DNA of 24,287 nt, taken from the IMG/VR virus record IMGVR_UViG_3300033571_007225, positions 1 to 24,287 of that record; one strand, given 5' to 3'. Positions 5,526-23,681 of this stretch are shown here, in pieces. How positions within the stretch are numbered: the stretch's first letter is position 1; each line of letters begins with the position of its first letter. This DNA comes from a virus. Both the position numbers and the translations under genes were made by a program. Under the pieces are notes generated by a model. That model saw only the letters and a list, made by a program, of their open reading frames with translations. It searched no databases and had not been told where the DNA came from.

Positions 5526-5789
5526 TCAATCCTCATCGTCATCTGGAAGATCAATGCTCTCGCCATGACGAGCAGCTTGCTGAAGTGTAAGAAACTCTAC
5601 TCGCTTTTCGAGTCGTCGAAGACGGGACCGCATTCCATTCTTACCATCTACGCCTATGAGAACTGTACGAAGAGTTCGGAGTTCTTGCAGAGCAAGATGC
5701 AGAGTCTTAACAGTCCACAGGCCAAAAGGAATGACAGCTACTTCGATAACTGTTTTTAGTAATTCCCAAGTGGAAGTCTCTGTAGCCAT
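5526..5789 (-). CDS. Small membrane protein, holin candidate
   Basis: An 87-residue protein with one hydrophobic segment (about 11-33, VIEVAVIPFGLWTVKTL) followed by a basic coiled-coil-like region (RSRLRRLEKRVEFLTLQQAA) and an acidic end (DLPDDDED). The gene ends just before the lysozyme start; the GAGGAT near its stop serves as the lysozyme ribosome site, so the two are coupled. One membrane segment with a charged cytoplasmic tail next to an endolysin is the usual form of a class III-like holin or a spanin-like accessory protein. No sequence family is recognised. The role is inferred from topology and neighbour. Confidence 0.6.
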   Translation of the reverse strand: MATETSTWELLKTVIEVAVIPFGLWTVKTLHLALQELRTLRTVLIGVDGKNGMRSRLRRLEKRVEFLTLQQAARHGESIDLPDDDED

Positions 5790-11092: not shown

Positions 11093-12979
11093 TTACCCTG
11101 CAAGTGGTAAGCCGGCAATGGGAAGTCCGCTCTGCGCAGTGACGTTAGCTGCTTCGATTCGAGCGTTTGGAGCAACAACAGAAGTGATTCCGCCGCCGGG
11201 AGCTGCATTAACTCCTTGAGGTGCTGTTGGAGCTTGTCCGGGTAGGCTGGGAGGAATCGCGGGCGGTCGATAGGCATCAAAATTAAAGATCAACTTTTCA
11301 GGGTTAGGAATGTCGAAAGCACGAAGGATCTCAAGATTGATTTGATCGGAAGCTCGCATTGCAGCCTTAGCAACTTCTTGGACCATGTTAGGATCACCGA
11401 CTTGTTGAGCCAGTGCCATAATTTGAGTCCAGTATTGAGTCTGCATTCCTGCGAGTTGCGTGTAGGTATTACGATCAAGAACCTTGTTATTCTTTGCGCC
11501 AGCGAGTTGGATGTTGAATACTAACTTATTACGAAGCTCTTCGATGTTCTTCCTAAAGAAAATCTCTACGTCAATAGGATTAGGAAGATAACGGAAGACA
11601 TCACGCTGAGTTGGTCCATACTTAAAGATGGACATTGCTGCGCGATGTACGACACGATTCAAGAAGTCTTTTTTGTTGTTGTAAGTGTAGTCAAACTTAC
11701 GATTAGACTCTTGAACACGAGCGAGAGAATCGGAAGCAGTTCCTGGAGTTCCGATGTTTGGCATGCCGAGAGTCAATTCATTGACTCCGGTACGCTGCTG
11801 AGAGTAGATGACTACTTGGTTTTCGTTGTTGTATGCAGAGGCTTTGACATCGCCAATAAACATTGGCTGGATATCATCCATATCCTCTACAAACCACTTC
11901 TTGCCGGGAAAGATAGGTTCATCATCCTTAATCCAAGAAGCGTCCTTCTTAACTTTGAACATCGCCATGTTCGCAATAGTAGCATTGTCGAGACGTTGGC
12001 GGTGCTGTGCTGTAACTTCTTCTTGAAATTGATTGTTCTGCTTAGCAATACCGTATCCGTACCAACGGTATTCCATTGGGAAGTAGACGCCCTTCTCATA
12101 ATCACGCTCCTCAGCGTAAGTAAGAGAAAGAATTTGGCGAGAATTCTCATGGAAGATAACTTCGATTGAGGACTCTTCGCCGTTTCCATCTACGTCAAAA
12201 TCAAGAAGAATGCGAACAAGTTCTATCTCGGAAGGATAGATTGGTGTAGTGTTAGTAAGTTCTTCTGTGCTAGAGAGAACCTTATCGTCGATAGTTACAC
12301 CAATGTAGTATCCGTTGAGTTTCTCGTAAGCATCTGGAGCAAGCTGAGAAGCTGCGACCATCTGCTTAAGAGTGTACTCAGAGATAGAAAAACGATGTCC
12401 AACCCAAGGAGATTCATCTACTTCTTGAGCGTAGAAAGGCATGAAGAAATCTTTGATGTCGATTCCTTCAATAAAGGTTCCTTTTTGACGATAAACTGGA
12501 ACCTTAATCTCTTGCCCATTAGCATCGGTTACTACATGAGTCTTTACTTCACGATAACCAACAGTCATAACGGCTGTGCCGTTCTTGGTCATCTGAAGAA
12601 GAGGAGACTCAACCTTCTTTCGGAACTCTAGATTGTTAAGAAGTTCAGAATTAAAAAGCTTTTCTAGGCCTTGCTTTGCAGCTTGGTCAGTATCTTGTAC
12701 GTCGATGGTAACGAGTTCCTTGAGCCCGAAGAGTTGGCCCATGTCTCGTGCATGGACGGCTTCTACTGCAATGGCTGTAAGAGGAACGATGATAGAGGCA
12801 AAGCCGGTTACAGGAAGTTCTGGAGTGCTATGAATAGGTTCTGCCCAGAAATCCTCACCTTCTTTGACCCAACGATCCTCTAGCTTACCTCTTTCAGCAT
12901 GATGATTAACAAGTTCATCTGCGACGTAAGAAGTAAGAGAGGATAAAATCTCTGGATCTACATCAAGTTGTCGTGCCAT
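11093..12979 (-). CDS. Portal protein
   Basis: 628 residues from the ATG at 12979. The position between terminase-side genes and the scaffold, the length, and the sequence all fit a portal: N-terminal helix (EILSSLTSYVADELVNHHAE), wing region (TGFASIIVPLTAIAVEAVHA), clip/stem-like region, and conserved EEVTAQHRQRLDNATIANMA, TGVNELTLGMPNIGTPGTAS and NNKKDFLNRVVHRAAMSIFK. The C-terminal 50 residues are Pro/Ala-rich and may be a barrel or core-contacting tail. The ATG has no ribosome site, while a TTG at 13030 has AAGGA five bases upstream and would add 17 residues (MFVTFVASSNY...). I keep 12979 because the added residues look like read-through of the preceding frame. Confidence 0.9.
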   Translation of the reverse strand: MARQLDVDPEILSSLTSYVADELVNHHAERGKLEDRWVKEGEDFWAEPIHSTPELPVTGFASIIVPLTAIAVEAVHARDMGQLFGLKELVTIDVQDTDQAAKQGLEKLFNSELLNNLEFRKKVESPLLQMTKNGTAVMTVGYREVKTHVVTDANGQEIKVPVYRQKGTFIEGIDIKDFFMPFYAQEVDESPWVGHRFSISEYTLKQMVAASQLAPDAYEKLNGYYIGVTIDDKVLSSTEELTNTTPIYPSEIELVRILLDFDVDGNGEESSIEVIFHENSRQILSLTYAEERDYEKGVYFPMEYRWYGYGIAKQNNQFQEEVTAQHRQRLDNATIANMAMFKVKKDASWIKDDEPIFPGKKWFVEDMDDIQPMFIGDVKASAYNNENQVVIYSQQRTGVNELTLGMPNIGTPGTASDSLARVQESNRKFDYTYNNKKDFLNRVVHRAAMSIFKYGPTQRDVFRYLPNPIDVEIFFRKNIEELRNKLVFNIQLAGAKNNKVLDRNTYTQLAGMQTQYWTQIMALAQQVGDPNMVQEVAKAAMRASDQINLEILRAFDIPNPEKLIFNFDAYRPPAIPPSLPGQAPTAPQGVNAAPGGGITSVVAPNARIEAANVTAQSGLPIAGLPLAG

Positions 12980-13187
12980 TGGGCTGTGGGCCGAAGAGTA
13001 GTTCGAAGATGCTACGAAGGTCACGAACAAAGATATCCTTCTTTATGATCCAGATTTTGATTGTAGTAACCTTTGTATCAAGATTTGCTTCGTACCAACG
13101 CCAGAACATCTGTGATACGACATCTCGAAACCATTGTTGATCTTGAATTGCGTAGTATGATAGATCAACGTCTTGCAAGGCAGCCAT
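12963..13187 (-). CDS. Small hypothetical protein before portal
   Basis: 74 residues from the ATG at 13187, which has GAGGA 8 bases upstream; an upstream start at 13202 would lack that. The sequence is MAALQDVDLSYYAIQDQQWF, then RDVVSQMFWRWYEANLDTKV, and a hydrophobic beta part TTIKIWIIKKDIFVRDLRSI. It ends FGPQPNGTTT, overlapping the portal start by 17 bases. Trp and Tyr are frequent. It is the first gene after the GC-rich gap and is probably translated ahead of the portal. No family is recognised; a small head or portal-assembly factor is only a positional guess. Confidence 0.6.
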   Translation of the reverse strand: MAALQDVDLSYYAIQDQQWFRDVVSQMFWRWYEANLDTKVTTIKIWIIKKDIFVRDLRSIFELLFGPQPNGTTT

Positions 13188-16475: not shown

Positions 16476-17290
16476 TTCTTCTTCTCCTCGTTGAAGATCT
16501 TTCCGCGAAGTGGATGATTCTTGAACTGAGGATCTTTTAGAAGATCTCTTACAATCATGCCCATCCCAGGAGTATTTGCTTCTAGGTCTCCTGCAAACTT
16601 ACGATAGTCCATTTTAGGATCGGCTTTTGTTTCCTGCAAGAACTCCCAAGCATTAACAAAAGCTTGCGCAAAGGCTTCTTGAGGATTAATACGATAATAA
16701 GGATCTACTGTTGCGAAGGCTTTATAATCAGATGGAGTGTTAGCAGATATCTTTTTATAAAAGAGATTCTGCTCCCTTTTAAAATCTCTGGGGCGTACTT
16801 CAGAAAACATCTTCGATACTTCTGAATATCCGGGAAAAGCTCCTCCATGTGAATTTGCAAGATGCCCATATTCGTGAATCATCACTCTACGAGGATCAAA
16901 TACAAAACCAGCAGGAGATTGCCTATATCTAGCTAGAGACTCTTCTTCCTGTTGATCGTAGCCCATAAAAGGACCATAAGCTGCTGAATCTGTATTGAAT
17001 CCCATTCCTATTGGAAATCTAGCTTCTCTTCCGGGAGCATAATCAACGTATCCCATTGCAGCTTGGGGGCCTCTGTCTCTAACTGAAGGATTAGGTTGAA
17101 ACATTGGGCCTAATGCTTTTAGAGAATCTGCAAGCGGAGATGCTAGTCTCCTATCCCAAGCTTCTGGAGAAGATTCGACAGAAGTTACTGGTCCCCTTTT
17201 ATAACGAGGATAAGCGTTGGGAGCAGGAAGCTCAGACTCAGGAGTTTTTCTATTAAATAATACGCGCAAAAACTCTTCGAAAGGATTCAT
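16472..17290 (-). CDS. Zincin-like metallopeptidase with N-terminal tag
   Basis: 272 residues. The start MNPFEEFLRVLF is the shared N-terminal tag, followed by a Pro-rich linker. Residues 135-143 (RVMIHEYGH) give the HExxH zinc site: H139, E140 and H143. A second conserved piece, INPQEAFAQAFVNA (201-214), offers E205 as a third zinc ligand, as in gluzincin-like peptidases and the metallopeptidase domains of phage polyvalent proteins. The C-terminal 50 residues are helical and basic. The start overlaps the large terminase stop as ATGA, and its end overlaps the ART-like gene in the same way. A protein-cleaving role on virion or host proteins is likely; the target is unknown. Confidence 0.75.
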   Translation of the reverse strand: MNPFEEFLRVLFNRKTPESELPAPNAYPRYKRGPVTSVESSPEAWDRRLASPLADSLKALGPMFQPNPSVRDRGPQAAMGYVDYAPGREARFPIGMGFNTDSAAYGPFMGYDQQEEESLARYRQSPAGFVFDPRRVMIHEYGHLANSHGGAFPGYSEVSKMFSEVRPRDFKREQNLFYKKISANTPSDYKAFATVDPYYRINPQEAFAQAFVNAWEFLQETKADPKMDYRKFAGDLEANTPGMGMIVRDLLKDPQFKNHPLRGKIFNEEKKK

Positions 17291-18882
17291 CCGACCCTCG
17301 TGTATCCAGTGATGGGATTCCGCATCGCTAAGAATTTATCCTGTGCTTGCTTCCTTCGATGAATCGTACCTCTATCTACGGCTGCTCTCCAGAACTCAGG
17401 ACCATAAGCAAGAGCATCGAGGATGTGGTATGAACTTCCCAAACCAAACTGATTGTATTCTTCATGCAAGGCTTTCTGATCCTTATGAAAGTAGATCTGA
17501 GAAGCATTGAAGTATGGAACCAAGCCTAGTACACGAGCATCCTTCTGCTTCTGCCCTGTTTTCGCAGGGATAATGTTGAAGTAGAAGTTCCTATGTCTCA
17601 TCTCTGACTGAAGCCAGTGTCTGTAGAGACGAGAGAAGAGTACTTCTTCGATGACTACTGCGCGAAGTCCCCAACGCTCCACGGCGTTGAAGATGCGAGG
17701 AATCATCTTGTCTGGCGGGATTGGACCTCGGAAAGCATCCAATGTGAAGATGTTCGGCTTGTGTGAAACGTAGTCTGATCCCGTGATGATCCAGCCTGCA
17801 TCTCCTTCCACCGCAGGGTCGATGAAGAGGAGCTTGTCGAGTTCATCAACGTGACGCTTGACGCGCTCCGTGCCGGTGAAACCAACAAGAGTTTTCTTCC
17901 GATCATCCAACCACTCAAAGTGACGAATCCACGAAGGATCAAGATCACGAACTTCTCGAAAGTCTGGCGCATTGAGATAGTTGGAAGTCCAGATCTTCTG
18001 GTTCTTCTTGAGTTCTTCGAGAGACTCAAGAGTGAACATCTCTGGAAAGATAGGTTCGTACTGTTGTGTCTTCGGATTGAACTCAATGACTGAACGAATG
18101 TATCGAGGAAGCTTCTCTCCGAACTTGTCCATTGCATGAGCATAGACATCTTCGTGATCGTAGCGAGTTCCTACGAGATCAAAGCCATCCGTCTTCGGAG
18201 TGACGAGGAATGGCTGAAGTTCATCGAACCATTGCAGCGTCTTGGACCGAGCCGTTTGTGAGTCTCGTGCTTCAGGTCCATAGATGTCGTCGAGCTTAAG
18301 ACGATTATAGTGTCGTCCTTGTGCTTTCGTGCCGACACCCATCGTTTCGAATGTTGGTTCCTTCCATGTCGCTGTTCTGTTGAACTCTAGCTGAGATGTA
18401 TTGACTCGACGAGTTCTTGCTTCTGGAATGATATCCGGAAAGAGGAATCGTAGCGTATCACTGGAAAGAACCCAGTTCTGGATTTCTCGGAGGATGTTGG
18501 ATGCCATCGTATCCGTTTCGTGGATGATAGCAATGCGAACATTGGGTCCAAGATTTCTGGGATATGGACAGAGATTCAGATCATCTGGTAGAGCGATCTG
18601 AAGTCCATCCATAGCTGTTGCGTATGTAGTTTTGCGATGAGAGCGAGGAAGAAGGATGAGTCTGTTCTTCGACTTCTCGTGTTTCTTCAGCCAAGCAAAG
18701 AGATGTGCGAAGAGCGGATAGTCTGAACGAGATCCGTCTTCATCATTTGGAGGAAGAAGAACTCCCTGAGCTAAGAATAGTAAATCGGTTTTTGCCTTGA
18801 CTCTCAGTTCCAGAAACTCCTGATCCGAGAACTGCTCCCGTGCTTTGTCCGGCGGGAGGTGGAGATCCGAGATATTCGACAT
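17287..18882 (-). CDS. terL: Terminase large subunit
   Basis: 531 residues with the two domains of a packaging motor. The ATPase has a Walker A-like LLPRSHRKT (77-85, Lys 84), Walker B LKLDD (195-199) followed by IYGPEARDS, and a coupling-like DLVGTRYDHED (235-245). The RNase H-fold nuclease has LLFIDPAVEGD (351-361, D355), AVVIEEVLFSR (408-418, E412/E413) and YHILDALAYG (485-494, D489), which supply the metal-binding acids. It powers DNA entry through the portal and cuts the concatemer. No ATG lies between 18882 and residue 91, so the start is fixed despite a 140-base overlap with the small subunit gene. The C-terminal RKQAQDKFLA helix may contact the portal. Confidence 0.95.
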   Translation of the reverse strand: MSNISDLHLPPDKAREQFSDQEFLELRVKAKTDLLFLAQGVLLPPNDEDGSRSDYPLFAHLFAWLKKHEKSKNRLILLPRSHRKTTYATAMDGLQIALPDDLNLCPYPRNLGPNVRIAIIHETDTMASNILREIQNWVLSSDTLRFLFPDIIPEARTRRVNTSQLEFNRTATWKEPTFETMGVGTKAQGRHYNRLKLDDIYGPEARDSQTARSKTLQWFDELQPFLVTPKTDGFDLVGTRYDHEDVYAHAMDKFGEKLPRYIRSVIEFNPKTQQYEPIFPEMFTLESLEELKKNQKIWTSNYLNAPDFREVRDLDPSWIRHFEWLDDRKKTLVGFTGTERVKRHVDELDKLLFIDPAVEGDAGWIITGSDYVSHKPNIFTLDAFRGPIPPDKMIPRIFNAVERWGLRAVVIEEVLFSRLYRHWLQSEMRHRNFYFNIIPAKTGQKQKDARVLGLVPYFNASQIYFHKDQKALHEEYNQFGLGSSYHILDALAYGPEFWRAAVDRGTIHRRKQAQDKFLAMRNPITGYTRVG

Positions 18883-22027: not shown

Positions 22028-22122
22028 GGTGTGTGTGCTTTTAGAATGTTTGAAGAGGACTTTTAAAAAATGGTGCAGAAATTTTTTGGGTTACTAAACT
22101 TATCATAGCACATGCTGTTTTG

Positions 22123-22138
22123 CCCCCTCCCCTCCCCC
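22123..22138 (-). other. Three tandem G-runs on the minus strand
   Basis: On the plus strand the sequence is five C, T, four C, T, five C, so the minus strand has runs of 5, 4 and 5 G separated by single A. A four-run quadruplex would need one of the 5-G runs to split, so this is only a possible structure. It lies 96 bases upstream of the late promoter, in the direction of leftward transcription coming from 22298. Confidence 0.45.
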
Positions 22139-22173
22139 TATGCTTGCACATCTGTTCGTTTCTGCGAATGTGG

Positions 22174-22231
22174 ATATACGCATACAAACATATACGCATA
22201 TGCGCATACATGCATGAAAGCATGCGCGCAT
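22174..22231. repeat. Alternating purine-pyrimidine tract with ATATACGCATA repeats
   Basis: ATATACGCATA occurs at 22174-22184 and 22190-22200 (period 16). From 22189 to 22216 all 28 bases alternate strictly between pyrimidine and purine. It includes the palindrome TATGCGCATA (22199-22208) and is followed by a small hairpin GCATG-AAAG-CATGC (22212-22225). Such DNA can adopt left-handed or cruciform forms, and can also be a protein-binding or unwinding site. Confidence 0.6.
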
Positions 22232-22252
22232 TCTGGAACAAGGAAAAGATAG

Positions 22253-22302
22253 ATACCTTAGTGCTAAGATAGTGTGATGCCACTAGCTTAGTACTAAGGT
22301 AT
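22253..22302. repeat. 22-bp inverted repeat made of two palindromic 12-mers
   Basis: Arms at 22253-22274 and 22281-22302 are complementary at 20 of 22 positions, with loop TGATGC. Each arm holds a palindrome of its own: CTTAGTGCTAAG (22257-22268, one mismatch) and CTTAGTACTAAG (22287-22298, perfect). The two centres are 30 bases apart, near three helical turns, which favours two dimers bound on the same face. The right palindrome touches the -10 box of the leftward promoter at 22298. No T-run follows on either side, so an operator is more likely than a terminator. Confidence 0.7.
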
Positions 22303-22537: not shown

Positions 22538-22596
22538 GGTAGGGCCGTAGGGCCGTAGGGTGCTGTTTGACATATCGGGTAGGGTACGGGTAGGGG
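22538..22596 (+). repeat. GTAGGG repeats with a G-quadruplex motif
   Basis: Five GTAGGG units: at 22539, 22547 and 22555 as an 8-base tandem GTAGGGCC, then at 22579 and 22590. Seven GGG runs lie in 55 bases. The last four form GGGTAGGGTACGGGTAGGGG (22577-22596), which fits four runs of at least three G with loops of 2, 3 and 2. A TTGACA at 22567-22572 lies inside the array, but no -10-like sequence is found 16-18 bases after it, where the G-rich motif lies instead. It ends 50 bases before the rightward gene at 22647. Confidence 0.65.
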
Positions 22597-23032
22597 AGCC
22601 TTTTGCTGTCCACTTGTACACCTATACACTCTGACAGGAGCACAACATGAGCCGGAAGAATCGGAACAATCGCAAGAGCGCGCAACAGATTGTCGAATCG
22701 TTCACGCGCGAAGATATCGTCGCAACCATTGCGGAACGGAACCAGATTTCCGCGCACGTTCTTAAGATAACGCAAGTTATCGAAGCAATGAAAGCTGCCG
22801 GAATGTCTGACGATGCCATTCAAGTGGTGCGCGAGCAGGTTGCAGAAGGAACCATGAAGCGCATTGCATATCTTGAATATAAGGTGCGTCGTGTCGCAAT
22901 CGCACTCACACGTTCGCAAGGTTACAACCACTGGTGCAACATTGTGGAGAACAATCTAGATTTCATTCCAACCGTAGCAGATAAAACGAAAGTCACACTT
23001 TCCAATATGTAACAACCATACCCTACCCGATA
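22573..23032. repeat. 14-bp inverted repeat flanking the first rightward gene
   Basis: TATCGGGTAGGGTA (22573-22586) and its exact complement TACCCTACCCGATA (23019-23032) lie on either side of the 121-codon gene. The left copy is part of the GTAGGG array; the right one begins seven bases after the stop codon. In RNA the 5' leader and 3' end could pair. As DNA they could be two sites for one protein, perhaps the product of the enclosed gene. Confidence 0.6.
22647..23012 (+). CDS. Small basic protein, first rightward gene (121 aa)
   Basis: 121 residues with a strong AGGAG six bases before the ATG. The start is basic (MSRKNRNNRKSAQQ). It is followed by a helical part (VESFTREDIVATIAERNQIS, AHVLKITQVIEAMKAAGMSD, DAIQVVREQVAEG) and a basic segment (MKRIAYLEYKVRRVAIALTR). 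The end is SQGYNHWCNIVENNLDFIPT followed by VADKTKVTLSNM. The alternation of helices could include a helix-turn-helix, but I do not recognise one clearly. It is flanked by an inverted repeat and followed by a terminator, so it is probably a single-gene transcript. An early regulator or DNA-binding protein is a reasonable guess. Confidence 0.75.
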   Translation: MSRKNRNNRKSAQQIVESFTREDIVATIAERNQISAHVLKITQVIEAMKAAGMSDDAIQVVREQVAEGTMKRIAYLEYKVRRVAIALTRSQGYNHWCNIVENNLDFIPTVADKTKVTLSNM

Positions 23033-23041
23033 CGTTAGCAG

Positions 23042-23071
23042 AAAGCATGCATAGAAATATGCATGTTTTTT
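23042..23071 (+). terminator. Rho-independent terminator after the 121-aa gene
   Basis: CATGCATA (23046-23053), loop GAAA, TATGCATG (23058-23065), then six T. An A-run before the stem can extend pairing into the T-run. The stem is AT-rich and only 8 bp strict, so strength is moderate. It begins 30 bases after the stop codon. Confidence 0.7.
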
Positions 23072-23132
23072 GCATTCCATGAATGTTAAAGCATTTTTTA
23101 TCCTGCAATGGATAACATGGATTTTGTTATAT

Positions 23133-23177
23133 GTTGTAATACAACGACGAATAAAAGTTGTAATACAACGACGAATA
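23133..23177. repeat. Two direct repeats holding the palindrome GTTGTA-A-TACAAC
   Basis: A 21-base sequence is repeated exactly at 23133-23153 and 23157-23177 (period 24). Each copy begins with GTTGTAATACAAC, a perfect inverted repeat around one base, followed by GACGAATA. This is the usual form of a pair of repressor sites. They lie directly downstream of a possible leftward promoter (23209-23181), whose start point would fall in the right copy. Confidence 0.7.
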
Positions 23178-23180
23178 GAT

Positions 23181-23209
23181 TTTTTATTTTTTAAGAGCTA
23201 GGATGTCAA
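23181..23209 (-). promoter_or_regulatory. Possible leftward promoter at inverted-repeat end
   Basis: On the minus strand, TTGACA (23209-23204) is followed after 17 bases by TAAAAA (23186-23181), matching 6 of 6 and 4 of 6 consensus bases. Transcription would run into the GTTGTAATACAAC repeats and then antisense to the 121-codon gene. The -10 lies in an A/T run and could be chance. Confidence 0.35.
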
Positions 23210-23460
23210 GGGGTAGCGAGTTTCATTGATACTAAAAAAGTCTGGAAACTACCCCCCTCTTCTTCTCCTCTTAGGATCATCAACCTTAGATTCACCTAGT
23301 TCGACTCCCTTTCAGGTTTGAACCCTACCGTAAACCTAAGGATTCACTTCCCTTTAGGTAGGATTCACCTCCCCTATCAGAGAATCCACCAGATTCACCA
23401 GATTCATCTGTATATCCCGAAGCTTTTCTCCTTTTAGCAAACCTTCTACCCCTTGACATC
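23202..23460. repeat. 259-bp segment bounded by 15-bp inverted repeats
   Basis: GATGTCAAGGGGTAG (23202-23216) and its exact complement CTACCCCTTGACATC (23446-23460) bound a segment very poor in G on the plus strand. Inside are five variants of GATTCACC (about 23289, 23341, 23365, 23390, 23399) and short pairings such as ACCTAA/TTAGGT (23334-23363). Both ends carry TTGACA pointing outward. It could be a structured RNA with a closing stem, a small mobile or MITE-like element, or a bidirectional promoter unit. No target-site duplication was identified. Confidence 0.6.
23325..23459 (-). CDS. Doubtful basic 44-aa ORF inside the inverted-repeat segment
   Basis: The ATG at 23459 lies in the right inverted-repeat arm and has GAGGGG five bases upstream on the minus strand. 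The product reads MSRGRRFAKRRKASGYTDES, GESGGFSDRGGESYLKGSES, LGLR: a basic start followed by Gly/Glu/Ser repeats. The repeats come from the GATTCACC copies, so the coding look may be a by-product of repeated DNA. No promoter is evident for it, and it is opposite in direction to its neighbours. I list it for completeness only. Confidence 0.22.
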   Translation of the reverse strand: MSRGRRFAKRRKASGYTDESGESGGFSDRGGESYLKGSESLGLR

Positions 23461-23482
23461 TAACCCCTCACAAAACTATGAT
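23453..23482 (+). promoter_or_regulatory. Strong rightward sigma70-like promoter
   Basis: TTGACA (23453-23458), an 18-base spacer, and TATGAT (23477-23482): 6 of 6 and 5 of 6 consensus bases. The -35 is part of the right inverted-repeat arm. The -10 contains the apparent ATG of the 67-residue ORF, so the transcript should begin near 23489, after that ATG. It is well placed to drive the genes from 23678 onward. Confidence 0.7.
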
Positions 23483-23681
23483 AACCATACGATACAACCG
23501 CGACTGGCAAGATTTTCAAGTAATAGATCCGCAAGGTCACATTTCACACCACTACGATGATGTATGGAGTGCATGGCATACTGCTAAGTTTTTACAGGAA
23601 AAGTATCACGAGGAGATTCACGTTTCATCTTCCGCACGTTCCAAAGTTAACAAGTTTCTCAAGGAGAACAACGACGCATGA
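23478..23681 (+). CDS. Small hypothetical protein (67 aa), start uncertain
   Basis: 67 residues: MITIRYNRDWQDFQVIDPQG, HISHHYDDVWSAWHTAKFLQ, EKYHEEIHVSSSARSKVNKF, LKENNDA. A compact strand-helix pattern with many aromatic residues suggests a real small fold. The only ATG (23478) lies inside the -10 box of a strong promoter and has no ribosome site. The gene would therefore need a transcript from further upstream or an unusual start. No in-frame ATG, GTG or TTG is seen in the first 30 codons. Its end overlaps the next gene as ATGA. No family is recognised. Confidence 0.6.
   Translation: MITIRYNRDWQDFQVIDPQGHISHHYDDVWSAWHTAKFLQEKYHEEIHVSSSARSKVNKFLKENNDA

What the first reader, a model, noticed from the sequence alone, without database searches (positions are those of the whole stretch)
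23202..23460. 259-bp G-poor segment with 15-bp terminal inverted repeats and outward promoters
Exact GATGTCAAGGGGTAG/CTACCCCTTGACATC ends enclose GATTCACC-like repeats and small hairpins. Each end carries TTGACA facing outward, so it may be a divergent promoter unit. It could also be a structured non-coding RNA closed by the end stem, or a small mobile element. It does not fit any element I know.
Basis: partly seen in the sequence, partly recalled or inferred. Interest (0 to 1): 0.55.

Follow-up and report, generated by a model that had tools for sequence, protein, structure and literature searches.

The report
Phage stem-loop element, probably replication origin
A non-coding stretch near the start of the early genes of an uncultured bacterial virus can pair end to end, distant relatives keep the pairing while the letters change, and it is most likely a place where the virus starts copying its DNA, although an RNA role is not ruled out.

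Summary
The 15-bp exact inverted repeat at 23202-23216/23446-23460 is real. It is the core of a larger element (23187-23476) that two relatives, G1 (47 kb) and G2 (48 kb), carry at the same place. Their 63-nt left and 61-nt right blocks align to the window without gaps and pair in one register: 86 of 132 cells are Watson-Crick (20,000 column shuffles: mean 37, maximum 62), with 16 compensated double changes (maximum 15). Pairing is conserved more than sequence. The TTGACA hexamers are not conserved, so "outward promoters" fails; no serine or tyrosine recombinase was found, so inversion or mobility is unlikely.

Seven of 11 larger-genome relatives have a strong long-loop inverted repeat, and all seven lie on the early-gene side of the structural/early divergence. 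Several carry tandem repeats. Mismatches show no G-U preference on the early strand (33 G.T, 35 A.C), which speaks for DNA rather than RNA pairing. Best reading: a stem-loop, partly iteron-type replication origin, like that shown for plasmid pRN1 (about 0.4). Main rival: a structured RNA (about 0.3). Strand, transcription, function and host are unknown.

The parts
23187..23249 (+). left (5') block of the element: T-run, AAGAGCTAGGATGTCAAGGGGTAG arm, inner stem and TCTGGAA motif
   Evidence: aligns without gaps to G1 (L025 2096-2034 minus) and G2 (L027 3870-3808 minus)
23416..23476 (+). right (3') block: CCCGAAGC motif, inner stem, CTACCCCTTGACATC arm, TAACCCCTCACAAAAC
   Evidence: aligns without gaps to G1 (L025 1913-1853 minus) and G2 (L027 3684-3624 minus); pairs with the left block in one register
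23446..23460 (-). exact 15-nt right arm
23250..23415 (+). C-rich, G-poor interior (C 0.33, G 0.12) with CTACCCCCCTCTTCTTCTCC run, GATTCAC repeats and 7 GANTC sites
   Evidence: interior is 123 nt in G2 and 120 nt in G1, C 0.46 and 0.39
23128..23175 (+). two tandem 24-bp repeats (GTTGTAATACAACGACGAA core), iteron-like, directly left of the AT-rich stretch
   Evidence: D2, 92% alike; G2 has 18-20 bp x 3.2 at the same place
23181..23194 (+). AT-rich stretch between the repeats and the left arm
   Evidence: TTTTTAA kept in G1 and G2
22647..23012 (+). first early gene upstream of the element (121 aa, no Pfam or PHROG match); a 146-aa homologue lies at the same place in G1
   Evidence: (E 1.7e-18 in G1)
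22570..22589 (+). left arm of a second inverted repeat, around the first early gene
   Evidence: I3, 90%
23016..23035 (+). right arm of that second inverted repeat
   Evidence: the gene at that place has the best flanking inverted repeat of 56 ORFs in G1 and of 57 in G2
23046..23071 (+). intrinsic-terminator-like hairpin CATGCATAGAAATATGCATG followed by TTTTTT, between the first early gene and the element
   Evidence: read; one search listed the same stem for the - strand only

Best explanation
The segment is the visible core of a cis-acting, non-coding DNA element at 23187-23476, most likely an origin of phage DNA replication or its initiation site. Proposed working: an initiator (phage-encoded; the neighbouring first early gene is a candidate, by position only) binds the short direct repeats next to and inside the element, the adjoining T/A-rich stretch melts, the exposed single strand folds into the long imperfect hairpin, and the phage's own primase/helicase and PolA-type polymerase start synthesis there. 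SHOWN here: position, gap-free conserved pairing with compensatory changes in three genomes, long-loop inverted repeats on the early side of the divergence in further relatives, tandem repeats beside or inside several of them, and replication genes in G1. INFERRED: melting, hairpin formation in DNA, initiator, priming.
For: Pairing kept while sequence changes: 86/132 Watson-Crick cells and 16 double changes, column-shuffle maxima 62 and 15 in 20,000; 68% of 153 cells paired against 34-50% when slid by 1-3 columns. In 7 of 11 relatives (G1, G2 and 9 named records) the only inverted repeat scoring 40 or more is on the early side of the structural/early divergence, up to about 2.2 kb from it; in G1 that repeat is the one round the first early gene, not the element itself. 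No RNA-strand preference in the mismatches of 9 elements: 33 G.T against 35 A.C. Iteron-like tandem repeats: W 24 bp x 2, G2 18-20 bp x 3.2 and 10 bp x 4.6, L038 25 bp x 6. Gene, terminator-like hairpin, stem-loop order read by eye in W, G2, Desulfofustis phage, MW202489 and Mel-JY34. G1 carries a DUF3987 primase, split PolA, helicase, Sak4 and exonuclease. Precedent: pRN1's origin is a 100-nt stem-loop behind the replication gene and a putative terminator, not conserved in sequence but conserved in structure; a large stem-loop is noted behind the replication genes of phage BIP-1 (PMC4234260, passages and section 18 part 1 of 2).
Against: No function was tested. G1's pairing is weak alone (25 of 44; its element is not among the six best 44-nt arm pairs of that genome). 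GC-skew extremes do not mark the element except in G1 (maximum at 5647 inside it; the 6 others do not). The origin could instead be the C-run/alternating purine-pyrimidine region at the divergence (22050-22240). Long-loop repeats of this strength are about as dense in 70 other viral loci (7 in 582 kb) as in the 11 relatives (7 in 485 kb); only their position is special, and non-coding DNA concentrates there. PaMx41, Vibrio ABTNL-3 and EBPR podovirus 3 have none and Tiera only a weak one. A pRN1-type AEP-SF3 initiator was not seen among the proteins scanned.
Confidence: 0.4

Rival explanations
1. Structured non-coding RNA (or a long RNA hairpin in a transcript) closed by the conserved end helix, possibly presenting a C-rich loop to a protein such as Rho.
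For: Conserved helix with compensatory changes. Early-strand folding far better than dinucleotide shuffles in several relatives: Desulfofustis z -10.6, MW202489 -9.7, MW202554 -11.0, better there than the other strand. Interior C-rich and G-poor in W, G1, G2, as rut sites are described (PMC9160355, passages).
Against: No G.U excess in the arms (33 against 35; gap-free blocks of W/G1/G2: 6 G.T, 12 A.C). In W and G1 the opposite strand folds better. No consistent promoter or 3' terminator found for either strand by eye or. No Rfam match at gathering score and only two sub-threshold, off-target ones. The C-rich bias is reversed in L038 and Desulfofustis phage.
Confidence: 0.3
2. DNA operator or looping site: inverted arms are bound by a phage regulator controlling the early promoters, for example the TTGACA-18-TATGAT promoter at the right arm.
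For: The element lies between a terminator-like hairpin and the next early genes; a TTGACA-bearing promoter-like sequence follows in W and, by eye, in Mel-JY34 and MW202489. Outer arm sequence GGGGTTAGATGTC is partly shared by both arms.
Against: At positions 25/36 and 27/34 (columns 25/99 and 27/97) three different base pairs occur in three genomes: complementarity, not a binding sequence, is kept. TTGACA is not conserved in G1/G2.
Confidence: 0.15
3. Small mobile element (MITE-like) or invertible promoter segment.
For: Exact terminal inverted repeats, 259 bp, no ORF of 60 aa or more inside.
Against: Syntenic in three diverged phages in the same orientation; no second copy of the two-block profile in the held loci; 0 of 3 records with PF00239 or PF00589; arms only 57-75% complementary over 44 positions; the exact arm is single in each of 20 viral stretches that hold it.
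Confidence: 0.05
4. Chance repeats in a low-complexity intergenic region.
For: W alone: score 30 against 31 in a block-shuffled window.
Against: Gap-free homologues with compensatory changes in G1 and G2.
Confidence: 0.05

Closest known systems
Stem-loop replication origin of crenarchaeal plasmid pRN1 (and the stem-loop noted behind the replication genes of Bordetella phage BIP-1), PMC4234260
   Same: Gene, terminator-like hairpin, then a stem-loop whose structure is conserved but not its sequence; [quoted passage not shown]
   Different: Here the element is longer (about 190-400 nt), has a large loop in W/G1/G2, and lies behind the first early gene rather than a primase gene; no AEP-SF3 replication protein was identified; no function tested
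RSF1010 oriV with ssiA/ssiB single-strand initiation hairpins (PMC4434180 and PMC4234260, passages)
   Same: Iterons plus hairpin-forming single-strand sites used by a dedicated primase and helicase
   Different: ssi sites are 40 nt; homology to RepA/RepB'/RepC was not tested
GOLLD and ROOL structured RNAs (PMC12286853, search listing only; their link to phages is recalled)
   Same: Large non-coding structured elements of largely uncultured sources
   Different: No Rfam match here; the helix shows no G.U preference; much simpler architecture
Rho utilization (rut) sites (PMC9160355, passages)
   Same: C-rich, G-poor stretch on the early strand in W, G1, G2
   Different: Closed by a conserved helix; skew reversed in L038 and Desulfofustis phage

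Membership tests
Stem-loop replication origin (pRN1 type) | Stem-loop conserved in structure but not in sequence at a syntenic non-coding place | tested here: met
   W, G1, G2; looser, position only, in 5 further genomes:
Stem-loop replication origin (pRN1 type) | Directly behind the gene of an AEP primase/SF3 helicase replication protein | tested here: not met
   gene upstream is a 121-aa protein without Pfam/PHROG match; the G1 primase is DUF3987 and lies far away
Stem-loop replication origin (pRN1 type) | Needed for replication | not testable with these tools
   needs an experiment
Iteron-type replication origin | Several tandem iterons next to an AT-rich stretch | tested here: inconclusive
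   W 24 bp x 2, G2 18-20 bp x 3.2, L038 25 bp x 6; Tandem Repeats Finder was run on G2 and L038 only; by eye no clear array in G1, Mel-JY34 or MW202554
Structured non-coding RNA | Helix with compensatory changes | tested here: met
   (three sequences only)
Structured non-coding RNA | G.U pairs tolerated on one strand more than A.C | tested here: not met
   33 G.T against 35 A.C over 9 elements
Structured non-coding RNA | Transcript | not testable with these tools
   no RNA data
Known Rfam family | Score above gathering threshold | tested here: not met
Mobile element / invertible segment | Further copies or a recombinase | tested here: not met
Divergent sigma-70 promoter unit | TTGACA plus -10 facing outward at both ends, conserved | tested here: not met
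   only the right end in W; hexamers changed in G1 and G2

The most novel reading that the evidence does not exclude
A broad group of 40-48 kb podovirus-like phages carries, just behind the first early transcription unit, a class of element in which only base pairing and not sequence is selected: a stem-loop origin of replication for DUF3987-primase/PolA phages, or failing that a family of long hairpin RNAs, not described in the papers found here.
Probability: 0.35. Interest if true: 0.7.

Novelty: new variant of a known kind. Interest (0 to 1): 0.5.

Why it matters
How phages of this DUF3987/PolA group start DNA replication was not found described in the papers searched here. An element that keeps its fold but not its letters is invisible to ordinary sequence comparison; showing where it lies (between the first early gene's terminator and the next early genes) makes it findable in other phages and directly testable. 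If it is an RNA instead, it would be a new kind of phage RNA.

Tried and rejected
Exact-arm pattern in viral contigs: 20 stretches, one match each, no pairs, hence not relatives. Degenerate left-arm pattern in viral contigs: 52 stretches; of those long enough to judge, only the G1 and G2 contigs hold a relative. Terminase search in viral contigs: 6 loci, 5 again with the alignment; in genome contigs none of 83, so the host stays unknown. First early gene in viral contigs: one hit, L029, a chance N-terminal match. ORF 23478-23681: no relative. Helicase search: G1, G2 and L095, whose contig ends before the element. Rfam: nothing at gathering score. INPHARED blastn of the window: nothing; blastn of the MW202554, Desulfofustis and Mel-JY34 regions found only themselves.

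Strand: arm duplex and interior folding compared on both strands, unresolved. A 16S-anti-SD-like GGATTCACCTCC in the window is not shared by G1 (reading only); dropped. The GANTC cluster (7 in the interior) is peculiar to the window (0 in G1, 0 in G2). C-run TAYCCCC inside the element: on the early strand in W, G1, MW202489, Mel-JY34 and Tiera, on the other strand in Desulfofustis and also in MW202489; not in G2, L038, MW202554, vir526: chosen after looking, not used as proof. GC skew: extreme at the element only in G1 of 7. AlphaFold of the first early gene: mean pLDDT 64.9, helices only, not searched further. L040 is too diverged to place the element. Searches for a description in print gave none for this element; only open-licence PMC papers are covered, and only PMC4234260, PMC4434180, PMC9160355 and PMC7145576 were opened (passages; of PMC4234260 also section 18, part 1 of 2).

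Full report
WHAT WAS CHECKED. The window (W) is a 24,287-base virus record with terminase (17287-18882, -) and portal (11093-13030, -) genes on one strand and small early genes on the other. The exact 15-nt inverted repeat is present once. Around it the arms extend imperfectly to 37 nt, 76% complementary. Folding of the 259 nt is better than dinucleotide shuffles on both strands (z -4.23 and -5.64); without the arms it is not (z -1.30 and -1.56).

RELATIVES. The terminase led to six contigs. Two hold the same region: G1 (47,446 b, L025/L031-L033) and G2 (48,032 b, L027/L034-L036). In both, a non-coding stretch lies between the first early gene and the small early genes. The first early gene of G1 is homologous to that of the window (35% identity, E 1.7e-18); in G2 the gene there is not recognisably related (16%). 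The 115-aa gene downstream has relatives in both (36 and 43%).

CONSERVED PAIRING. The left block (23187-23249) and the right block (23416-23476) align to G1 and G2 without a gap, while the interior varies (166, 120 and 123 nt). In one register (left + right index = 61) 106 of 180 cells are Watson-Crick (59%); none of the other 34 registers listed exceeds 35%. Over 44 pairs: W 28, G2 33, G1 25. Against 20,000 shuffles of the right-hand columns, neither the 86 paired cells nor the 16 double changes was reached (maxima 62, 15). The independent pair counter, on 51 pairs, gives 68.0% of 153 cells paired, 12 pairs with a change on both sides and 19 further pair types (its shuffles reaching these: 10, 41 and 1 of 500), and 34-50% when slid. 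RNAalifold puts 35 pairs in the same helix, 10 with double changes, although its covariation term is slightly unfavourable (+2.32). With three sequences this is good but not massive evidence, and the control is milder than mine.

WIDER SCAN. A scan for inverted repeats with loops of roughly 100-1000 nt was run on 14 sequences. With a threshold of 40 and merging, 7 of 11 larger-genome relatives have exactly one: G1 (63, around the first early gene, not the element), G2 (44, the element), MW202489 (46), MW202554 (40), Mel-JY34 (41), Desulfofustis phage (44), vir526 (60); PaMx41, Vibrio ABTNL-3, Tiera and EBPR podovirus 3 have none. All seven lie on the early side of the structural/early divergence, up to about 2.2 kb from it (positions). 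The same scan finds 7 in 582 kb of 70 other viral loci, so the density is ordinary; the position is what is special. Random placement in 2.5 kb of 44 kb would give 7 of 7 with about 2e-9, but since such repeats sit in non-coding DNA a fairer chance per genome may be 0.3-0.5 (my guess), giving 0.0002-0.008. Sequences of these further elements were not aligned with each other; that they are one kind is inference.

RNA OR DNA. If an RNA strand were selected, G.U should exceed A.C among the mismatches. Over nine elements, in early orientation, there are 33 G.T and 35 A.C. In the gap-free blocks of the three close relatives: 6 and 12. Folding scores are divided: the early strand is clearly better in Desulfofustis (-10.6 against -7.0), MW202489 (-9.7 against -6.4), MW202554 (-11.0 against -7.6) and G2 (-4.2 against -3.0), about equal in Mel-JY34 (-5.4 against -5.3) and vir526 (-7.9 against -8.6), worse in W (-3.8 against -5.0) and G1 (0.0 against -1.7). 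I therefore lean to DNA pairing (both strands equal), without excluding RNA.

SURROUNDINGS. Two 24-bp direct repeats (23128-23175) and a T-rich stretch lie left of the element; G2 has an 18-20 bp array there and a 10-bp array inside; the more distant contig L038 has six 25-bp repeats between palindromes after its first early gene and a terminator-like hairpin. In W, G2, Desulfofustis phage, MW202489 and Mel-JY34 the order gene, terminator-like hairpin, element can be read by eye. The first early gene itself is flanked by a second inverted repeat: the best of 56 ORFs in G1 (62, next 25) and of 57 in G2 (43, next 22); W has it at 22570-22589/23016-23035 (score 30, within the range of its own shuffles, max 34; the gene was dropped from the W list because a longer ORF overlaps it); L038 has it too (one search found the outer palindrome, another the inner arms 3237-3269/4032-4058).

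INTERPRETATION. A non-coding element between a terminator-like hairpin and the next early genes, with structure kept and sequence free, short tandem repeats and a T/A-rich stretch, in phages that carry a DUF3987 primase, a split PolA polymerase, a helicase and Sak4 (G1), resembles replication origins more than anything else I could compare. The closest tested precedent is pRN1: a 100-nt stem-loop behind the replication gene and a putative terminator is required, restores replication when moved, and relatives keep the fold but not the sequence; the same paper notes a large stem-loop behind the replication genes of the 42.6-kb phage BIP-1 (PMC4234260, passages and section 18 part 1 of 2). RSF1010 combines iterons with single-strand hairpins for its primase (PMC4434180 passages; PMC4234260). 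Membership in the pRN1 type is not claimed: no AEP-SF3 protein was seen in what I tested and the gene upstream is different.

LIMITS. Three close sequences; no transcription or replication data; host unknown (an endolysin match suggests a bacterium); a competing candidate origin lies at 22050-22240, where a C-run and alternating purine-pyrimidine tract are shared by W, G1 and G2.

Noticed in passing
window 22050-22240: At the structural/early divergence W, G1 and G2 share GCAGAAATTT, a CCCCTCCCC-like run and a long alternating purine-pyrimidine tract (ATACGCATA..., GCGTATGCGTATATGCG), perhaps Z-DNA prone or another origin candidate.
   Followed up: partly
window 22570-22589 / 23016-23035: The first early gene has complementary 5' and 3' flanks; same in G1, G2 and L038 with different sequences.
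   Followed up: partly
window 22253-22302: Strong hairpin, arms 22 nt, 91% complementary with a 6-nt loop, upstream of the early genes.
   Followed up: no
L038 and L040: Several small early genes are preceded by a palindrome: CAAAAAACTTTTTTG in L038, GGGGGAAAAATTTTCCCCC in L040.
   Followed up: no
window 23250-23415: Seven GANTC sites in 166 bp, 0.47 expected in shuffles; none in the interiors of G1 and G2.
   Followed up: partly
L029 7642-9414: Reverse-transcriptase-like ORF with YADD and a downstream DNDSG stretch, looks like a retron or related RT on an unrelated phage contig (family name recalled, not tested).
   Followed up: no
G001 and G002 contig ends: Both contigs begin beside the same helicase gene and end beside the same small gene, suggesting true genome ends there.
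   Followed up: no
L103 (Polaromonas phage Tiera) 43590-44110: A tandem copy of about 72 bp with ATCCCCCCACACCCC lies in the junction gap, bounded by a weak inverted repeat.
   Followed up: no
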